From positions 1 to 64,000 of the forward strand of contig JAJTFM010000012.1 of assembly GCA_021298575.1 (NCBI GenBank): a stretch of DNA of 64,000 nucleotides. The letters are read 5' to 3'. The translations under genes were made by a program, and so were the position numbers. The stretch comes from Saprospiraceae bacterium (GTDB taxonomy: Bacteria > Bacteroidota > Bacteroidia > Chitinophagales > Saprospiraceae). The notes below the pieces were generated by a model. It had not been told where the DNA came from. It saw only the letters and a list, made by a program, of their open reading frames with translations, and did no database searches. This document shows positions 4,963 through 55,066 of the stretch, piece after piece (the first letter of the stretch is position 1; each line of letters starts with the position of its first letter).

Positions 4963-7668
4963 TCAGAAATGGAAATCCCAACTGAATACGATGTAAGGCG
5001 TCACGGCACGCACCGACGAGCGGGTTTCGTAAAAATACCAGGCATTGCTTCTTCCGAAAGAGTCGGATAAGAGGAGGTTCATGGCTGAAAGTATCAACGT
5101 ACTCCTCCAGGCAGGTACTTCTCTTGACAGTGTTCCGGATAATCCGTAGTTTACGTCCATGGGTGCACCCGATAACCGGGCCCCTGTTTGAAACACGTCG
5201 AGTTTGAGGTTCGTTTTGGCGTCGGGTTTTATGTGTATGCGCACGGTGGAAAACAGGTTGTTGCCACCGACTTTAACACCCGTTTCGCCTGTTGCACCGA
5301 AAGATGTCCACTGCATACTCAGGACTGCATTAAACCAGCCGTCGAATGCACTGCCGTATTTGAAGGTTATGCTTTTTTGTTCATTCAGAAAAAGAGCAGA
5401 AGAAACATCATTTACCGCAGCATATGAACCGATTTTCATCCACATGGCCGACACTTCAAATCTCGAACTCATCGCGGGGACGAATCTGAAAACCGAACCA
5501 TTCAGAGCGGTACTGTTGGAGGTGACGGGTCTGTATATATTTCTCAGGAAAAAATCTGGATTAATCTGGTATCCGGAACCGGTCACATTTGAATTTACAC
5601 CGGTGCCCAGGCTTGCGCTCCACCCATAAAACTTGCGTGCGTTGTGATAGTTGTATGAAATATCCGCATTTTGCTGATTAACGACGGCTATTTGAGGCAG
5701 CCCGCGATTAAACGTCTGATAATCCGAAACGATGTATCCAGGCAGGTAATCTGTTGCTCCCGACAGTACCGGGGTAAAACCATAACGCACACTGATATAG
5801 TGCCACCGACTGATAAAATAGGTAACTTTTACAGCAGACTCGGTGGTCACCTGCTTTTTTTGCTGTAATACGAAACCTGAATCGCGCAATATGGCCTGCA
5901 GCAAGCCCGGGTTTGCATTTATTCTGAACTGCCAGTTGCCGGCAGAGCGTGCAACCCGAAAGCCTGTGCGATACGTTGTTGTCCGGAGGCCAATATCATT
6001 CCGGAAATCGGTGTCGGGTACGGTCATTTCATTGCTTTGGCCCAAAAGCCCGACTGACGAGTTAATCCGGGCAAGTGCCTGTCCTGCATCGGCAGTCAGT
6101 TCCAGATTCCAGCCGGACCGGACCGTCAGGAAGCGCAGATTAAGCGCATTGGCGGACTGACGCAACAGTGATGGCTGTTTGAGGCCGGTGAAACTGGAAT
6201 CTGTGTGAAAAAGGGTAAAATATCGGTTATAGGTGGAATTAAACGTCTGTTGTTCTTCCAATTGAGCCGCCCGGGCGATTACCTGAAGGATACTCTTACT
6301 GTTCACCTTGTAACTGTAATCGGCGGCTGCGAAACCTTGCCTGGTATGGTTGTCGGGGTTTTGATCAACGTGCAGTGTATCGGCAGGTGTTGTACTTCTG
6401 TCCAGAGAGAAATAGTCGTTTAACGGATCGGAACGATACTGCAGAAAAAACTGGAGAGACTGTCGCTGATTGGGAGCGGAGTAATTCAGGTCGGCCTGAA
6501 TATTGGAAGAGGAAGCTTTTTTGGCGGTTCGGGTATTTTCCGAGAGTCGCTGAATCAGAGAGCCTGCGCGGTAAATCGCGATTCTGTCGGCCTCCTGTTT
6601 CAGCGATTCAGCCCCTGTCCAGCCTGTCAGTTTCAGTTTCGTTTTCGGGTTCACGGGAACAGTGTAGCCTCCGAAAACCAGCGCTGATTTGTTTTCTACA
6701 CTGAAAGCTGCGGGCATACCGGCATATTCCAGGGATTGTCCTGCATAGAGCGATTCTTTGACAAGCGGATTGTCTGTATATTTTATACCATCGAAGTCGG
6801 GCAACCGGATAATCGAAGCACCGGTTGATTCCAGCGCGTTATTCCCTGTGTTATTGGTATTTCCAAGGATATATGACTTGCTCTTCTTTGTTATTGAAAT
6901 CAGGTTGATATGCGTTTGTCCGCGTGCGCGACCTCCAAAGCCGGCGCCAGTTGTGGTGCTTCCGGATATTTTATATTTTTTGTCTTCCCGTATGGTCAGA
7001 TTAAGCACCATTCGCTCTGACTCACTGATTCCTTTGAACAGCGGATTATCCTGATAGCGATCAATAGCCTGAATTTTATCTATCATATCTGCCCGGATAT
7101 TTCTGGTACCTATCGTGTAGTTTTGGTTAAACAGGTCGTCGCCCTCAATCATCACTTTTTCTACGGATTTTCCGCCGACCGTGATGCGGCCATTGTTATC
7201 CACCTGAATACCGGGAATTTTTTTCAGCAGGTCTTCCACTGAAAATTCGGTGCTGTCTGAAAATGCCCTGGCGCTATATTCTGTGGTATCCGACCTGACG
7301 ACTACGGGCAGTGCTTCTGCCCTGATGACTATTTCATTCAGCGCACCTGCGCTCAGACGAATAGTCAGGGATGACATATTGTTGCCGGAGAGCTTCATGC
7401 GAAACGGGTTATATCCGAGCGATCTGACATACAGCGTTGGTGTGTCGCAACCTGACAGCTCTGGCTTCAGAGAGAAGTTTCCGGACTGATCGGTGTTGCA
7501 GAATGCCAGAACGCGGTCATCGTTACAGGATCTGACGATGACGCTGGCCATTTCAACTGGTTGACTGAGGCTGTCGAGTACCCGACCCGAGATAACAGCC
7601 TGGGCATTTGTATATACAGGGAGTATCCATGCTGTGAGATACAGCAGGATTTTGAGCCCCGGCGTCAT
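4963..7668 (-). CDS. Outer-membrane beta-barrel protein with carboxypeptidase-regulatory-like N-terminus
   Basis: This 901-residue protein has a signal peptide (ending YTNAQA) and a carboxypeptidase-D regulatory-like domain at about 25-110 (VISGRVLDSLSQPVEMASV). A TonB-receptor-like plug follows at about 120-230 (VEDLLKKIPGIQVDNNGRITVGG, seen in part). The rest is a long C-terminal barrel rich in alternating aromatic strands and ending in FSWDFHF. This is the outer-membrane beta-barrel family that often sits beside GLPGLI genes. Its ATG overlaps the stop codon of the upstream GLPGLI gene by ATGA, implying translational coupling. No TonB box or SusD partner was recognised, so a transport role is unproven. 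Confidence 0.88.
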   Translation of the reverse strand: MTPGLKILLYLTAWILPVYTNAQAVISGRVLDSLSQPVEMASVIVRSCNDDRVLAFCNTDQSGNFSLKPELSGCDTPTLYVRSLGYNPFRMKLSGNNMSSLTIRLSAGALNEIVIRAEALPVVVRSDTTEYSARAFSDSTEFSVEDLLKKIPGIQVDNNGRITVGGKSVEKVMIEGDDLFNQNYTIGTRNIRADMIDKIQAIDRYQDNPLFKGISESERMVLNLTIREDKKYKISGSTTTGAGFGGRARGQTHINLISITKKSKSYILGNTNNTGNNALESTGASIIRLPDFDGIKYTDNPLVKESLYAGQSLEYAGMPAAFSVENKSALVFGGYTVPVNPKTKLKLTGWTGAESLKQEADRIAIYRAGSLIQRLSENTRTAKKASSSNIQADLNYSAPNQRQSLQFFLQYRSDPLNDYFSLDRSTTPADTLHVDQNPDNHTRQGFAAADYSYKVNSKSILQVIARAAQLEEQQTFNSTYNRYFTLFHTDSSFTGLKQPSLLRQSANALNLRFLTVRSGWNLELTADAGQALARINSSVGLLGQSNEMTVPDTDFRNDIGLRTTTYRTGFRVARSAGNWQFRINANPGLLQAILRDSGFVLQQKKQVTTESAVKVTYFISRWHYISVRYGFTPVLSGATDYLPGYIVSDYQTFNRGLPQIAVVNQQNADISYNYHNARKFYGWSASLGTGVNSNVTGSGYQINPDFFLRNIYRPVTSNSTALNGSVFRFVPAMSSRFEVSAMWMKIGSYAAVNDVSSALFLNEQKSITFKYGSAFDGWFNAVLSMQWTSFGATGETGVKVGGNNLFSTVRIHIKPDAKTNLKLDVFQTGARLSGAPMDVNYGLSGTLSREVPAWRSTLILSAMNLLLSDSFGRSNAWYFYETRSSVRAVTPYIVFSWDFHF

Positions 7669-8171
7669 TGTTCAATCATTTCGAGAGAACTGATTCTGAG
7701 CTGGATTCCCTGTGCCTGGGATGATTTGATCAGATTCTTGTCGAACGCTTCTTTTTCTTCTCTGAATGTGCCGTAATCAAGTCCCGTGGCAAACCCGTCG
7801 GGAGGTATAATGGACGAGTTGATATTTTTTGACAGAACCAGTTCCTTGAAGAGAAACTGTACTTTTCCATCGGTTGATTTGGCTTCGAGGATGAGGCCGG
7901 GCAGACCGCCCTGTTTGTCGCCCCGGATGGTTACCGGGAAAACGTATTCCGGGTCGCTGTAGGTGGAATCAGGTCGTACAACCTCGCTGTGAATAAACAG
8001 CGAGCCGGAGGTATTGAAAAGCAGGACGCAGGTGCCATTTTTATCAGTTTCACCGGAAAGAGAAACCGACCGCAGGTATGCGGCATACCCGATGGGCCTG
8101 GAAATATCGGACTGGGCAGCCAACGGCGTCAGGAGGTACAGCAGAATTACGGGAATAAAGCAGATTTTCAT
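7665..8171 (-). CDS. GLPGLI family protein
   Basis: This 168-residue secreted protein has a signal peptide (MKICFIPVILLYLLTPLAAQ) and contains the diagnostic motif GGLPGLILEA near residue 95. That motif is followed by the usual strand pattern (VQFLFKEL). The family is restricted to Bacteroidota and has no established function. The protein is shorter than most members, which have roughly 220-280 residues. The ORF track begins at 8315, but MKICF at 8171 gives a clean signal peptide. It overlaps the downstream barrel gene by 4 nt (ATGA), and the two are likely co-translated. Confidence 0.85.
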   Translation of the reverse strand: MKICFIPVILLYLLTPLAAQSDISRPIGYAAYLRSVSLSGETDKNGTCVLLFNTSGSLFIHSEVVRPDSTYSDPEYVFPVTIRGDKQGGLPGLILEAKSTDGKVQFLFKELVLSKNINSSIIPPDGFATGLDYGTFREEKEAFDKNLIKSSQAQGIQLRISSLEMIEQ

Positions 8172-8290
8172 GGTATTGAGTTTTAGATTTGAAAATAAAT
8201 AATACATTGTTTGGCAAGGATACTGATTTTTTTTTTTAAATTCGAAAAAAATATATAAGTAAAATTTGTGTTTATCAAACACACACGGAT

Positions 8291-8341
8291 AAAGCAGAGG
8301 CCGTCTCACACACACTGAAGTTGTGAGACGGCCCCTGCTTT
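8291..8341. terminator. Strong hairpin, probable terminator of the usp gene
   Basis: A 20-bp stem with one mismatch (aaagcagaggccgtctcaca against tgtgagacggcccctgcttt) encloses an 11-nt loop. It lies about 105 nt beyond the stop of the minus-strand usp gene and upstream of the GLPGLI start. The outer A/T part of the stem supplies a short T-run in either direction. Confidence 0.6.
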
Positions 8342-8445
8342 ATATCGAATGAAAAGGATGTTTTGTATATGTACCGGACTGTCGAAAAGTCGCTTTCAGG
8401 CTGATAAGCCACAGGTCATCCGGTTAACATAAAACATCTGCCACG

Positions 8446-12983: not shown

Positions 12984-15300
12984 TTATGCAAGATCCATTT
13001 CAATCTGTCGGCGGTTGAGGTCAACACTGACCACCCTGACATTTACCCGGTCTCCCATCCTGATTTGTTTTTTGTAGCGTCGTCCGGTAGCGCTCAGGTT
13101 TCCGGGGTCTATGGTGTATGTATCTTCGAGATACCGGAATTCCACCAGGCCCTCGGACCTTGAGTCGGGGAGTTCGACAAAGAAACCCCTGTCAATGATT
13201 CCGCTCACGATACCTTCGAACACATCGCCGACATGTTTTTTCAGGAATTCTGCCTGTTTGTATTTGATACTTTCCCGTTCTGCATCGGCTGCCTTTTTTT
13301 CCTGGCTACTGATGTGTTTGCACTGTTCTTCGAGTTTCGCCTTATCCACGCGGTAAGTACGCCCGTCGAGATTTTGTTCGAGGATCCGGTGGGCCAGAAC
13401 ATCGGAGTAACGGCGGATGGGAGAGGTGAAGTGGGAGTAGTGCGTGAAACCAAGGCCGTAGTGCCCAATATTGTCGGATGAGTAGACCGCCTTGGCCATG
13501 GTTCTGATTGCCAGTGGTTCGAGGATTTTGAGGCGATCGTCTTTCCGTGCCGCCACCATCAGATTATTAAAGGATTCGGCGATCTGTTTTGGTGTATCCA
13601 CCTTCATGGCGTGCCCCATTTCGGCAGCGAACCGTGCGAATTCGGTTATTTTGCTCATATCGGGGAGGTCGTGCACGCGGAAGATGAAAGGTATTTCCCT
13701 GCCCTCCTGATTTTGAGGTGATTCAGTGTCGCCTTTTTTGGGTTTGAGGGGCGGGTGCATATACAGGGCTACTTCTTTGTTTGCCAGCAACATGAAATCC
13801 TCGATAAGGAGGTGAGCATCCTTGCGTTCCTTCACATAAGCCTCTACGGGTACGCCGTCTTCATCGAGGCGGAAGCGGACCTCATCGGTTTCGAAGCCGA
13901 TTGCACCGTTCTTTTCCCGTTCCTTCCTCATTTTTCCGGCTATTCTGTGCAGATCGAAGAGCGCCTTTTCCAGTTCGCCGAAGAGCGGGTGCTTTTTCAG
14001 TTCGGGTGCCGGTTTTTTATCCAGCACGGTTTGAGCTTCCTCGTATGAAAATCACTGTTTTTCCGAACCAGCGTTTAACCAGTTTATCACTGGAATCGAA
14101 TTCGAATACTGCCGAGAAAGTGAGACGATCCTGTTCCGGGACCAGTGAGCACAGGTTATTGGAGAGTTTTTCGGGCAGCATGGGATTACACCGGTCTACG
14201 AGATAGACCGAGGTGCTTCTGGCGAATGCCTCCTTGTCCATCGGGGATCCGGGTTTCAGGTAGTGTGTTACATCTGCGATGTGTACACCTACCTCCAGAT
14301 TTCCGTTTTCGAGTTTACGTACACTGAGTGCGTCGTCGAAGTCTTTGGCGTCTTCCGGGTCAATAGTAAAGGTGAGGATATCGCGAAAATCGCGTCTCAT
14401 TTCAATTTCCTGAGGAGAAATGGTATCGGGGATACGAGCGGCTTCGGCTTCAGCTTCTTCGGTATGCTGAAGCGGGAACCCGTAGTTGATGAGAATCTTC
14501 TTCATTTCGAAGTCGTTCCCCCCTATTGTTCCGAGTACCTGTGTTACTTTTCCGATGGGCACCCTTCCTTTTCCTTCCTGCCAGTCAGTGATGGCCACGA
14601 CCACCTTGTCACCATCGGCAGCTTTACCGCAGGCTTCGAGGGGTACATATATATCTGTCTGGATATTCGGGTTATCGGGCAGGAACATGGCGTACTTCCT
14701 GCTGAATTTGATGGTACCCAGGAAAATCTCATTAGCGCGTTTGAGAACCAGAAGAATCTCTCCTTCCGGTTTTCGGGCGGGCATACCGCGTCTGCGGGCG
14801 GGCGGAGGCGGGAACAACAGTACCTGTACCGTATCACCGTTCATTGCACCGTTTGTATGTTTTTGAGGCACATAAACGTCGGAATCCATCTGGTCGGATA
14901 TGATGTAGGCAGCACCGGTGCGGGTCATATCCACCCTGCCTTCAATCACCTTTCTGTTTTTTGACTGGCTGACTGGCTGTTTTTCGCGGACAGGTATTTC
15001 GGGCCGGATTCTTTCCTCCCTGATAGCGGGAGATTTAACAGGTTCATCATCCTCTTCGGAGACAAATTTGTCGATTGCTATACCGTATCTGTTGAGGGAG
15101 TATTCGGTGACGGAGCCCAGTTTGGCCAGTTGTTGCAGGGCATATTCTGCAGCGTCCCTGTTATTTTCGACATGCAGTTCATGGATGATTTGCTGCGGCG
15201 CGTATTGTTTTTTGGGTCGTTGCAGCAGGAATCGGAGAATTTCAATTTGTAATTCCCGGGCGGTCAGCTTTTTGCCGCCGTGTTTTTTCTTTTTAGACAT
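12984..15300 (-). pseudogene. rnr: Ribonuclease R, frameshifted by a small internal deletion
   Basis: Two ORFs in different frames together make one RNase R. The 5' part (15300 to about 14050) carries the winged-helix N-terminus, cold-shock domains and the catalytic RNB motif DPEDAKDFDDALS. The 3' part (about 14050 to 12984) carries HYSHFTSPIRRYSDVLAHR and the C-terminal S1 domain. At the junction the first frame reads WFGKTVI and then diverges, while the other frame resumes FSYEEAQTVLD. Family members have about five residues between these motifs, so about 17 nt appear missing. The first ORF ends in SNRAG, and the second has only a GTG start. Either the gene is truly broken or the assembly has an error here. 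Confidence 0.85.
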
Positions 15301-25866: not shown

Positions 25867-26640
25867 TTATCCGATACTTTCCAGGTCTGACAAGTCCTTC
25901 ATGACCGTATAGTTGGTCAGGTCGTGCATGGATGGCACCACTGACACATATCCGTTTTCGAGCGCCCATACATCCGTGTCGTCGCCGGTATCTTCGTTAA
26001 TAAATTCGCCCGTGAGCCAGTAATAGGGCCTTCCGCCTGGATCGCGACCCTCAACGAATTTTTCGACCCACCGTGCATTTGCCTGTCGGCACAGTCTGAT
26101 ACCCCTGATTTCCTGTGGAGAGAGTTTGGGGAAGTTGACATTGAGCAGGCATCCGTGTCGAAACGGTTGTTCGAGCATGTAACCTATGACTTTTCCTGCC
26201 CAGAACCTGGAGGCTTCGAAGTCTGCATCGAAACTGAAGTCGAGCAGAGAGAAACCAATGCTTCTGATACCTTCCAGAGCGGCTTCCATGGCTGCGGAGA
26301 GCGTACCCGAGTAAAGGATATTGATACTGGCATTGCTGCCGTGATTGATACCCGAAACACAAAGTGATATGGGACGATCCTTCAATATCACGTGCTTGGC
26401 CAGTTTTACACAGTCAACAGGCGTGCCGGAACACTCCCATGCTTCAATACCCTCAAAAACGGACACTTTTTTCAATCGGAGCGGATCATGGATTGTGATA
26501 GCGTGCCCCTTGCCACTTTGGGGCGAATCGGGGGCTACGACAATAACTTCGCCGAAAGTTTCAGCTACTTCCACCAGAGCACGTATGCCTGGAGCAGCTA
26601 TGCCATCGTCGTTTGTAACGAGAATCAGAGGTTTTGACAT
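25867..26640 (-). CDS. surE: 5'/3'-nucleotidase SurE
   Basis: This 257-residue phosphatase releases phosphate from nucleoside monophosphates. The metal-binding N-terminus ILVTNDDGIAAPGI is intact, followed by VVAPDSPQSGKGHAIT, SGTPVDCVKLA and VSGINHGSNASINILYSGT. Length is normal. A -7-like box ends only 4 nt before its ATG, suggesting a leaderless transcript. Orientation is convergent with the acyltransferase. Confidence 0.95.
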   Translation of the reverse strand: MSKPLILVTNDDGIAAPGIRALVEVAETFGEVIVVAPDSPQSGKGHAITIHDPLRLKKVSVFEGIEAWECSGTPVDCVKLAKHVILKDRPISLCVSGINHGSNASINILYSGTLSAAMEAALEGIRSIGFSLLDFSFDADFEASRFWAGKVIGYMLEQPFRHGCLLNVNFPKLSPQEIRGIRLCRQANARWVEKFVEGRDPGGRPYYWLTGEFINEDTGDDTDVWALENGYVSVVPSMHDLTNYTVMKDLSDLESIG

Positions 26641-26644
26641 GGTG

Positions 26645-26652
26645 CAAATTTA
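26645..26652 (-). promoter_or_regulatory. Candidate -7 box immediately before surE
   Basis: The minus strand reads TAAATTTG-CACC-ATG. The box ends 4 nt before the start codon, so transcription may begin at or very near the ATG. Confidence 0.5.
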
Positions 26653-26803
26653 TGTATGTAATAAATATTTTACGCGAAATATGTGCGTTTTAAAAATAAT
26701 ATCATACAATTGCATGGAATTTTATTGTGCGTCCAAACGTTCATTAATTATAATTATAAGCAAACTCTGCCAGAGGTTTTCTTTTACCAATAAACAAGCA
26801 GTG

Positions 26804-28390
26804 ATGAAACAGTTTTTCCAGGCTATTTTCTTCCTCATTTTTGTATCCGCTTCCTCTTTCGGGCAAAAATCAACGGTGACATATATCCACTTTGAAGAGG
26901 AGGATGTGGACAAGTTATTTTATGTATATGAAAATCCACGTGATGATAATGAAGAGGGCATAACTGTATTTTCCTATGCAAGGGGCAAGCAAAAATTTTT
27001 TTTCGCAGTAGATAACACCTACGACCGGCCTCGCACGGCACCTGTTGGTATGAATACTGCCGAGAATGCAAAAATTGGTGAAACGCTTGTTTCAGGTATA
27101 AATAGCCAGTCGAAAGAGGTAAAACTTGTTTTCAAACGAAGTGCGTCGTCTTTCCATGTATTTACGGTCAAGTCAGCCTCCATGATGTCATTTGAAGGAT
27201 TGAAATGTGTGTTCAGAAATCAGCATACAGCCTTTGCCTTTGATACTACAGATTTGAACTTTGAGGATAATCTGGCCCTGAAGAAGACGGAAAACACGGT
27301 GAACTACGATGTAACAGCCCGCAAGGGATGCCTCAGACAGTACAAGTTTACCTGTAAAAGCCAGAAAAACAGGCAGTTTGTTTCCGAGCTGGAAATAATA
27401 CCCTCTGTGGGTGTGGTATATGAGCGAACAGGTATAGGTAAAACACAGGCTGACGAGAACGAGGCTACTCTTTCTGAAATCGGCAATACGGGCTTTGCTG
27501 ATTACGTAGCCGACAAATGTAATCAGACGGAAGTTCTGCCTGATGATCCGGCTCCGTTTTTTGATCCGTCCAATCCGCCGGCTGTCAGAGAATATCGCTA
27601 CGGAGATATCACCGTGCGTATTTCTTGTCCCGAACTTTTGGGCTATGGCAAGCACGTTGTTCAGCGTGGCGATAATCTGTACAGTATCTCCAGGACTTAC
27701 GGTGTTCCGGTGAAAACACTTGTCAAGTGGAACGATATTGAGAATGAGAATGTGATTGAGGTCTGTCAGGAAATATGGTATATACCACCTCCGGGGGAGG
27801 CTCCTGTCGGACCGGTAAGGGAGCCGGAGGAGATAAAAGTACCCGGCAAGGTCATTGATCAGAGAAAACTGTATCCGAGTGATTCGGATGGACAGTCCTG
27901 GGGAGGTGGTAGTGGACGTACTACCGGTTCGGGTGGTAATAAAACAAAACTACCGGCAGGTGGTAATGACTCCAAAACACAAACACACATCGTAAAAAGT
28001 GGTGAAACACTGCAAAGACTTGCTACCAAATACAATTGTCCGGAAACCTGTATCAGAGAAATGAATAAATTTCCGGTTAAAGGAACGGTCGGCCTGAAAG
28101 TAGGACAGAAAGTCATCATCGGAAACTGCGATTGTCAGAAAGAAGATGAAACGTATGGCGACAAGCAGCCTCAGAGAAGTACCGGGAAGGGAGCGGGTAC
28201 AGAGAGAACTTCGAGCGGCGGGTCCTCAACCCCGGTGCTTATTCACAAGGCGGTGAAAGACAAAAAATTGAGTACCATTGCCACCGAACTGGGCTATTCT
28301 GCTCAGGAACTTGCCAGGTTGAACAACATGAAGGAGAGCGATATCGTCAGGGCAGGAACCGAGCTGAAGGTGCCGCGCAGGAAAAAGTAA
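26804..28390 (+). CDS. Secreted protein with three LysM domains
   Basis: This 528-residue protein has a signal peptide (MKQFFQAIFFLIFVSASSFGQ) and an N-terminal region of about 250 residues that I do not recognise. Three LysM modules follow: HVVQRGDNLYSISRTYGVPV near 290, HIVKSGETLQRLATKYNCPE near 400, and KAVKDKKLSTIATELGYSAQ near 485. Low-complexity Gly/Ser/Lys linkers separate them. LysM modules bind peptidoglycan glycan chains, so the protein is likely wall-associated in the periplasm. The ORF track start at 26345 lies antisense to surE; the ATG at 26804 gives the signal peptide. The N-terminal domain function is open. Confidence 0.85.
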   Translation: MKQFFQAIFFLIFVSASSFGQKSTVTYIHFEEEDVDKLFYVYENPRDDNEEGITVFSYARGKQKFFFAVDNTYDRPRTAPVGMNTAENAKIGETLVSGINSQSKEVKLVFKRSASSFHVFTVKSASMMSFEGLKCVFRNQHTAFAFDTTDLNFEDNLALKKTENTVNYDVTARKGCLRQYKFTCKSQKNRQFVSELEIIPSVGVVYERTGIGKTQADENEATLSEIGNTGFADYVADKCNQTEVLPDDPAPFFDPSNPPAVREYRYGDITVRISCPELLGYGKHVVQRGDNLYSISRTYGVPVKTLVKWNDIENENVIEVCQEIWYIPPPGEAPVGPVREPEEIKVPGKVIDQRKLYPSDSDGQSWGGGSGRTTGSGGNKTKLPAGGNDSKTQTHIVKSGETLQRLATKYNCPETCIREMNKFPVKGTVGLKVGQKVIIGNCDCQKEDETYGDKQPQRSTGKGAGTERTSSGGSSTPVLIHKAVKDKKLSTIATELGYSAQELARLNNMKESDIVRAGTELKVPRRKK

Positions 28391-44236: not shown

Positions 44237-45926
44237 ATGCTGTGCGTTGTCACGGCACTCAAAGTAGCCGATACAGCCCTGATGATACTCAATGCGCGAA
44301 ATGGTGTTGAAGTAGGTACAGAACTGATCTGGGAATACATTGAAAAAAACGAGACACCGACCATACTTGTAGTCAACCAGCTTGATCACGAGAAAGCCGA
44401 TTTTGAAACCACCCTGGAGCAGGCTAGAGCCCGTTTCGGGAACCGCGTCATACCGTTTCAGTTTCCAGTAAATCAGGGTCCGGGCTTCAATGCAATAATT
44501 GACGCACTCCGGATGGTTATGTATAAATTTCCTGCCGGCGGAGGAAAGCCGGAAAAACAGCCGGTACCGGCCGAATATCAGGCCAGGGCGAACGAGTTGC
44601 ATGCCGCGCTGGTAGAAGCAGCTGCTGAAAATGATGATGCGCTGATGGAGCGCTTTTTTGAGGAGGGAACACTGAACGAAGAGGATCTCGCCAGGGGCCT
44701 GAAGACAGGACTGGCGCACCGCCAGTATTTTCCGGTGTTCTGTGCTTCCGGATTACAGGATATGGGCAGCGGTCGTATCATGGGGTTCATCCACGATGTA
44801 TGCCCGAGTCCGGCAGACAGGCCTGCGGCACCACTCGAGGGGGGTGGTTCCAAACCTTGTGACGCAGGAGCGAGGCCGTGTGTTTTCATATTCAAGACAG
44901 TTCAGGAGCCCAAGGTTGGAAATGTATCCTACTTCAAGGTGTATTCCGGTACACTCAAGGCCGGCGATGAACTGGTGAATGCTGATAACGGTACCGTTGA
45001 GCGTTTTTCACAGTTGTTTGAGAGCGAGGGTAAAAATCGCGATCAGGTAGAATTACTGATGGCCGGCGATATAGGCTGCACGGTCAAGCTCAAAAATTCG
45101 CATACCAACCAGACACTGAATCCCAAGGGTTCGGAGTTGAAAATTGAGCGCATTCATTTTCCGGCATCATTTCGGGGTACAACTTCAGTTTGCCGAGCCC
45201 CGAATTCCGTATCGTGAAACTATCACCAAGATGGTGAATCAGGATTATCGCCACAAAAAGCAGTCGGGAGGAGCTGGTCAGTTTGCCGAGGTGCACATGC
45301 GTATCGAACCATATTACGATGGCATGCCCGACTCGGCCGGGCTCACGGTGAAAAATACGGAAGTGGAGGAGCTTAAATGGGGTGGCAAATTTGTATTCGT
45401 GTGGGCAATTGTCGGTGGTGTGATTGACATGCGTTTTGCCAATGCCATCAAGAAAGGAGTCATGGCCAAACTGGAGGAGGGGCCCTGTACCGGCTCCTAT
45501 TGCCGCGATGTGCGCGTCAGCGTATATGACGGAAAGATGCACGATGTGGATTCCAACGATATGGCGTTCCAGATTGCCTCCACAATCTGCTTCAAGGAGG
45601 CTTTCCACAAAGCTCATCCACAAATACTGGAGCCCGTTTACGATCTGGAGGTGATGTGTGATGCTGAAGTAATGGGTAATGTGATGGGTGATCTGCAGAC
45701 GCGGCGTGCAATTATCATGGGTATGGATACGGAGGGACACTATCAGGTTATACGCGCCCGTGTACCACTTAAAGAGCTTCACAAGTACTCCTCTGCACTT
45801 CGGTCGCTCACTCAGGGCAAGGCTAAGTTCACCATGACCTACGTCGAGTATGCACCGGTGCCAGCCGATGTTCAGGCCAGGCTGACGGCAGAATATACGC
45901 AGGCGACGCATCACGAAGAGCATTAA
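44237..45926 (+). pseudogene. EF-G-like translational GTPase, 5'-truncated with an internal deletion and frameshift
   Basis: Two ORFs form a decayed EF-G paralogue of the FusA2-like type. EF-G similarity starts abruptly about 10 nt after the cyclase stop with VTALKVADTALMILNARNGVE. The first ~100 residues, with the P-loop, switch I and DTPG motifs, are absent. The first ORF continues through NQLDHEKA (G4) and domain II to IERIHFPA, then loses homology. The second frame resumes at HHFGVQLQFAEPRIPYRETI and runs to the normal C-terminus (HKYSSALRSLTQGKAKFTM, EYAPVP). About 60-70 residues of domain III are missing at the junction near 45165. The product cannot be a working GTPase. Confidence 0.85.
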
Positions 45927-54966: not shown

Positions 54967-55066
54967 ACTATTTAGGTTATCCCGAGGGGTTAAAGTGTGT
55001 TCAGGATTCAAAACTGGCAAAAAACACGCCTGTTTTTGCCATCGGCAGAAAACCCTGTACAGGCTT

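What the first reader, a model, noticed from the sequence alone, without database searches (positions are those of the whole stretch)
12984..15300. RNase R split by an apparent 17-nt deletion
WFGKTVI in one frame is followed at once by FSYEEAQTVLD in the other. Relatives carry about five residues between the motifs, so roughly 17 nt seem lost near 14048-14053. RNase R is widely conserved, and both halves keep all key residues, so the lesion is recent or an assembly error. If real, structured-RNA decay must be carried by another enzyme.
Basis: partly seen in the sequence, partly recalled or inferred. Interest (0 to 1): 0.6.

Follow-up and report, generated by a model that had tools for sequence, protein, structure and literature searches.

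The report
RNase R gene broken by assembly error
An RNase R gene in a draft bacterial genome looks cut in two by a missing 17 bases, but the same contig carries several other breaks typical of badly joined sequence pieces, so the gene is most likely whole in the living cell and the split is an artefact of assembly.

Summary
Against the closest relative held (G001, same genus, about 84% identical here) there is one indel in 1,903 aligned bases: a 17-nt deletion at about 14046-14054. Every relative read across the site is uninterrupted, and the genome holds no second RNB gene or second copy.

The lesion is most likely an assembly artefact. The genome is a 250-contig draft, 87% complete. Its contig C31 (120 kb) carries other frame-breaking lesions in strongly constrained genes: an EF-G2 gene lacking about 600 and 185 bp, and an amidohydrolase with an 11-bp tandem duplication. 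Other contigs contain short N-runs marking scaffold joins, and two were checked against G001. One has 12 N plus an 11-nt repeated overlap where nothing belongs. The other has 14 N where about 225 bp belong. Joins closed without N would give exactly the lesions seen in C31. Both rnr halves remain under strong purifying selection (dN/dS 0.03-0.05), as do intact neighbours. A very recent real 17-bp deletion is not excluded (about 18%). PNPase is present. No inference about altered RNA decay is warranted.

The parts
14017..15300 (-). N-terminal half of rnr: OB_RNB/CSD2 domains and the first 117 positions of the RNB domain, with the DPEDAKDFDD metal-binding motif; ends at a stop soon after the lesion
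   Evidence: Pfam RNB 1-117/326, CSD2, OB_RNB; PDB match to bacterial RNase R 8cdu, E=1e-61
12984..14027 (-). C-terminal half of rnr: rest of the RNB domain (HYSHFTSPIRRYSDVLAHR motif) and the S1 domain; a GTG at 14025-14027 overlaps the stop of the N-half frame
   Evidence: Pfam RNB 141-324/326 and S1; PDB match to 8cdu, E=1e-50
14046..14054 (-). site of the apparent 17-nt loss (exact edge ambiguous by a few bases)
   Evidence: single gap of 17 in 1,903 aligned nt against G001; relatives uninterrupted

Best explanation
rnr is an ordinary single-copy bacterial RNase R gene that is intact in the organism. The 17-nt loss is an assembly artefact: two sequence pieces ending on either side of the site were joined directly, without the short stretch between them and without an N marker. 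Shown: the loss, its uniqueness among the relatives read, several other join-type lesions in the same contig, and wrongly sized joins elsewhere in the assembly. Inferred: that this particular site is such a join, since raw reads were not available.
For: The genome is a 250-contig draft, 87% complete. Of 71 G001 proteins compared with C31, seven were flagged. Three genes are truly broken in the G000 contig: rnr; an EF-G2-like gene (missing about 600 bp with the P-loop region, and about 185 bp internally); and an amidohydrolase split by an exact 11-bp tandem duplication at contig 88,140-88,161. The same genes are open in G001. Seven N-runs of 2-78 occur in 529 kb of other contigs, so the assembly was scaffolded. 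At L190:6392 the flanks of a 12-N run share an 11-nt overlap, and merging it fits the frame of a gene open for about 1,300 codons. G001 lacks the roughly 23 extra bases there. At L216:10048 a 14-N run stands where G001 has about 225 bp. The two rnr halves have dN/dS 0.034 and 0.053 against G001, like intact neighbours (0.013-0.12), and no other lesion lies in the gene.
Against: No reads or coverage could be examined. There is no N-run at the site or anywhere in C31. The sequence around the loss is compatible with a microhomology of about 3 nt (TTT), as real short deletions often show. A very recent real deletion would leave the same dN/dS.
Confidence: 0.78

Rival explanations
1. A real, very recent 17-bp deletion in this strain or sub-population (slippage between short T-runs) that inactivates RNase R, with PNPase and other nucleases covering.
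For: Single clean indel with about 3-nt microhomology. The only RNB gene in the genome is broken and PNPase is present. RNase R is dispensable under laboratory conditions in several bacteria (general knowledge).
Against: It would need several unrelated, strongly constrained genes in one 120-kb contig to be broken independently and so recently that no other decay shows. The same assembly demonstrably has mis-sized joins.
Confidence: 0.18
2. The two frames are expressed as two polypeptides (N-half, plus C-half started at the GTG that overlaps the N-half stop) which assemble into a working split RNase R.
For: Both halves keep their motifs and constraint. A GTG with an upstream GAGGA lies at the frame overlap.
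Against: The break falls inside the RNB catalytic domain with 5-6 residues missing. No relative shows a split gene. The GAGGA and GTG are codons of the conserved YEEAQTV stretch, so their presence is incidental. Bacteroidota make little use of Shine-Dalgarno sites (general knowledge).
Confidence: 0.02
3. Ribosomes restore the frame by programmed frameshifting across the junction.
For: The frames differ by +1 at the junction (sequence).
Against: No relative has a frameshift there. No stop codon or known slippery motif lies at the shift point, and the product would still lack 5-6 residues of a conserved part of the RNB domain.
Confidence: 0.01

Closest known systems
Ribonuclease R (TIGR02063; RNB family PF00773), e.g. 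bacterial RNase R 8cdu and 5xgu
   Same: Domain order CSD/OB - RNB - S1, catalytic motifs, single RNB gene in the genome
   Different: Reading frame interrupted by an apparent 17-nt loss in the RNB domain
Sequence-error frameshifts in deposited genomes, e.g. Deinococcus radiodurans BAA-816 (PMC11219805)
   Same: Genes annotated as broken, including RNase J as a pseudogene and RNase R in a shortened form, read as full-length ORFs in the sequenced laboratory stock of ATCC 13939
   Different: There the differences are mostly small indels, between two stocks of one cultivated species, and in the passages read they are not all attributed to sequencing error; here the signature is scaffold joins in a draft genome (missing blocks and duplicated overlaps)

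Membership tests
RNase R (TIGR02063) | Profile match over the whole protein above the curated cut-off (597.85 bits) | tested here: not met
   Each half alone scores 291 and 324 bits, below the cut-off, but they cover profile 55-362 and 389-709 of 711 in order
RNase R (TIGR02063) | CSD/OB domains, RNB domain, S1 domain in order | tested here: met
   OB_RNB, CSD2, RNB 1-117 in the N-half; RNB 141-324 and S1 in the C-half
RNase R (TIGR02063) | One uninterrupted reading frame | tested here: not met
   Two frames in this assembly; uninterrupted in relatives
RNase R (TIGR02063) | 3'-5' exoribonuclease activity on structured RNA | not testable with these tools
   Needs biochemistry
Assembly-join artefact | Same assembly shows demonstrably wrong joins elsewhere | tested here: met
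   L190 N12 with 11-nt repeated overlap; L216 N14 for about 225 bp
Assembly-join artefact | Further frame-breaking lesions in constrained genes of the same contig, not in the relative | tested here: met
   EF-G2 (two lesions) and amidohydrolase
Assembly-join artefact | Reads contradict the assembled sequence at the site | not testable with these tools
   No raw reads available
True pseudogene | Relaxed constraint or secondary lesions | tested here: not met
   dN/dS 0.034 and 0.053, single indel; a very young pseudogene could also lack these

The most novel reading that the evidence does not exclude
A bacterium of the Bacteroidota has, very recently, really lost its only RNase R by a 17-bp deletion, together with damage to EF-G2, and lives with PNPase as the only processive 3'-5' exoribonuclease found here.
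Probability: 0.15. Interest if true: 0.3.

Novelty: not a real feature. Interest (0 to 1): 0.07.

Why it matters
It matters mainly as a caution. This draft contains joins that break genes, so gene-loss claims from it (RNase R, EF-G2) should not be made without reads. If the lesion were real, it would be a recent natural loss of RNase R.

Tried and rejected
A second rnr or an intact copy of the site elsewhere in the assembly: none found. Similar DNA in plasmids: none. Programmed frameshift and split-enzyme readings: no support among relatives. A first dN/dS run on the C-half used the wrong frame and was replaced. Some genes flagged were discarded as spurious upstream extensions or antisense ORFs (for the 609-aa case; the others judged from the ORF layout). 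A count of exact tandem duplications was no cleaner in G001 than in G000 and was not used as evidence beyond the single 11-bp case. Literature search for broken RNase R gave only the Deinococcus precedent.

Full report
What is there. On the minus strand two ORFs overlap by 11 nt: 14017-15300 and 12984-14027. They are the two halves of one RNase R. The N-half carries OB_RNB, CSD2 and RNB positions 1-117. The C-half carries RNB 141-324 and S1.

How large the loss is. The closest relative held, G001 (same genus; its contig is also L041), aligns over 1,903 nt with 84% identity and a single gap, 17 nt at this site. In the relatives in which the motif was read, five residues stand between the two motifs, and no relative with a hit has an internal stop. 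The genome has no second RNB gene and no second copy of the site. PNPase is present with an open frame of 827 codons.

Is the gene decaying? No. Against G001, dN/dS is 0.034 for most of the N-half (0.124 for its first 179 residues) and 0.053 for the C-half. Intact genes of the window give 0.013-0.12. So the lesion is either very young or not real.

Is the assembly trustworthy here? The genome is a draft of 250 contigs, 87% complete, 2.7% contaminated. Contig C31 (120,488 bp, of which the window is the first 64 kb) was compared with G001. Of 71 G001 proteins, 64 were matched whole in one frame. Among the seven flagged, three genes are truly broken in C31. The first is rnr. The second is an EF-G2-like gene at 44237-45923: it lacks about 600 bp at its 5' end, including its P-loop region, and about 185 bp inside, with a frame change. 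The third is an amidohydrolase at contig 87,402-90,451, split by an exact 11-bp tandem duplication at 88,140-88,161. The remaining flags look like spurious extensions, antisense ORFs or local divergence. The remaining EF-G2 pieces are also under strong constraint (dN/dS about 0.02).

Direct evidence of bad joins. In 529 kb of other contigs of this genome there are seven N-runs of 2-78 bases, so the assembly was scaffolded with estimated gaps. Two were checked. At L190:6392 the two sides of a 12-N run repeat the same 11 bases. A long ORF (1,089 open codons on one side, 226 on the other) fits in frame only if that overlap is merged, and G001 shows 23 fewer bases over the stretch, that is 12 + 11. 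At L216:10048 a 14-N run stands where G001 has about 225 bp. So this assembly both duplicates short overlaps and drops short stretches at joins. The C31 lesions (11-bp tandem duplication, losses of 17, about 185 and about 600 bp) are what such joins look like when they are closed without N.

Conclusion. The most economical account is that rnr is intact in the organism and the 17-nt loss is an unmarked bad join (about 0.78). A real, very young deletion, possibly by slippage between short T-runs flanking the site, is the main rival (about 0.18) and cannot be excluded without reads. Split-enzyme or programmed-frameshift readings have no support. The GAGGA...GTG at the overlap consists of codons of the conserved YEEAQTV stretch. 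A published precedent for apparent RNase gene damage that is absent on sequencing a related stock is Deinococcus radiodurans BAA-816 versus ATCC 13939 (PMC11219805).

Limits. No reads or coverage were available. Deletions and duplications were judged against one sister genome, itself a draft, with broader support from relatives only for rnr. There are no N-runs inside C31, so that the rnr site is a join is an inference from the behaviour of the rest of the assembly.

Noticed in passing
window 44237-45923 (+): EF-G2-like gene broken twice relative to G001: the first ~90 codons including the P-loop region are missing directly after an adenylate cyclase gene, and ~185 bp are missing near 45170 with a frame change.
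   Followed up: yes
contig C31 (beyond the window) 87402-90451 (-), lesion at 88140-88161: Amidohydrolase-like gene split by an exact 11-bp tandem duplication, resembling an unmerged contig overlap.
   Followed up: yes
L190:6392, L216:10048: Short N-runs at scaffold joins whose length is wrong by +23 and about -211 bases against the sister genome.
   Followed up: yes
window 4986-8445: About 3.4 kb (ORFs 4963-7668 and 7665-8315, minus strand) present here where G001 has only ~127 bp: insertion here, loss in G001, or a bad join in G001.
   Followed up: no
window ~55007-55066; L151:6540-6715: Short dispersed repeats matched at many places in G001, the second on both strands; part palindromic, perhaps a small mobile or REP-like element.
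   Followed up: no
L192, L208, L210, L225: Short tandem and dispersed repeats built on CGCAGAG / CTCTGCG in non-window contigs of the same genome.
   Followed up: no
window 26345-28390 (+): 681-aa ORF here is matched in two frames in G001 (L141), so G001 may have its own frameshift.
   Followed up: no
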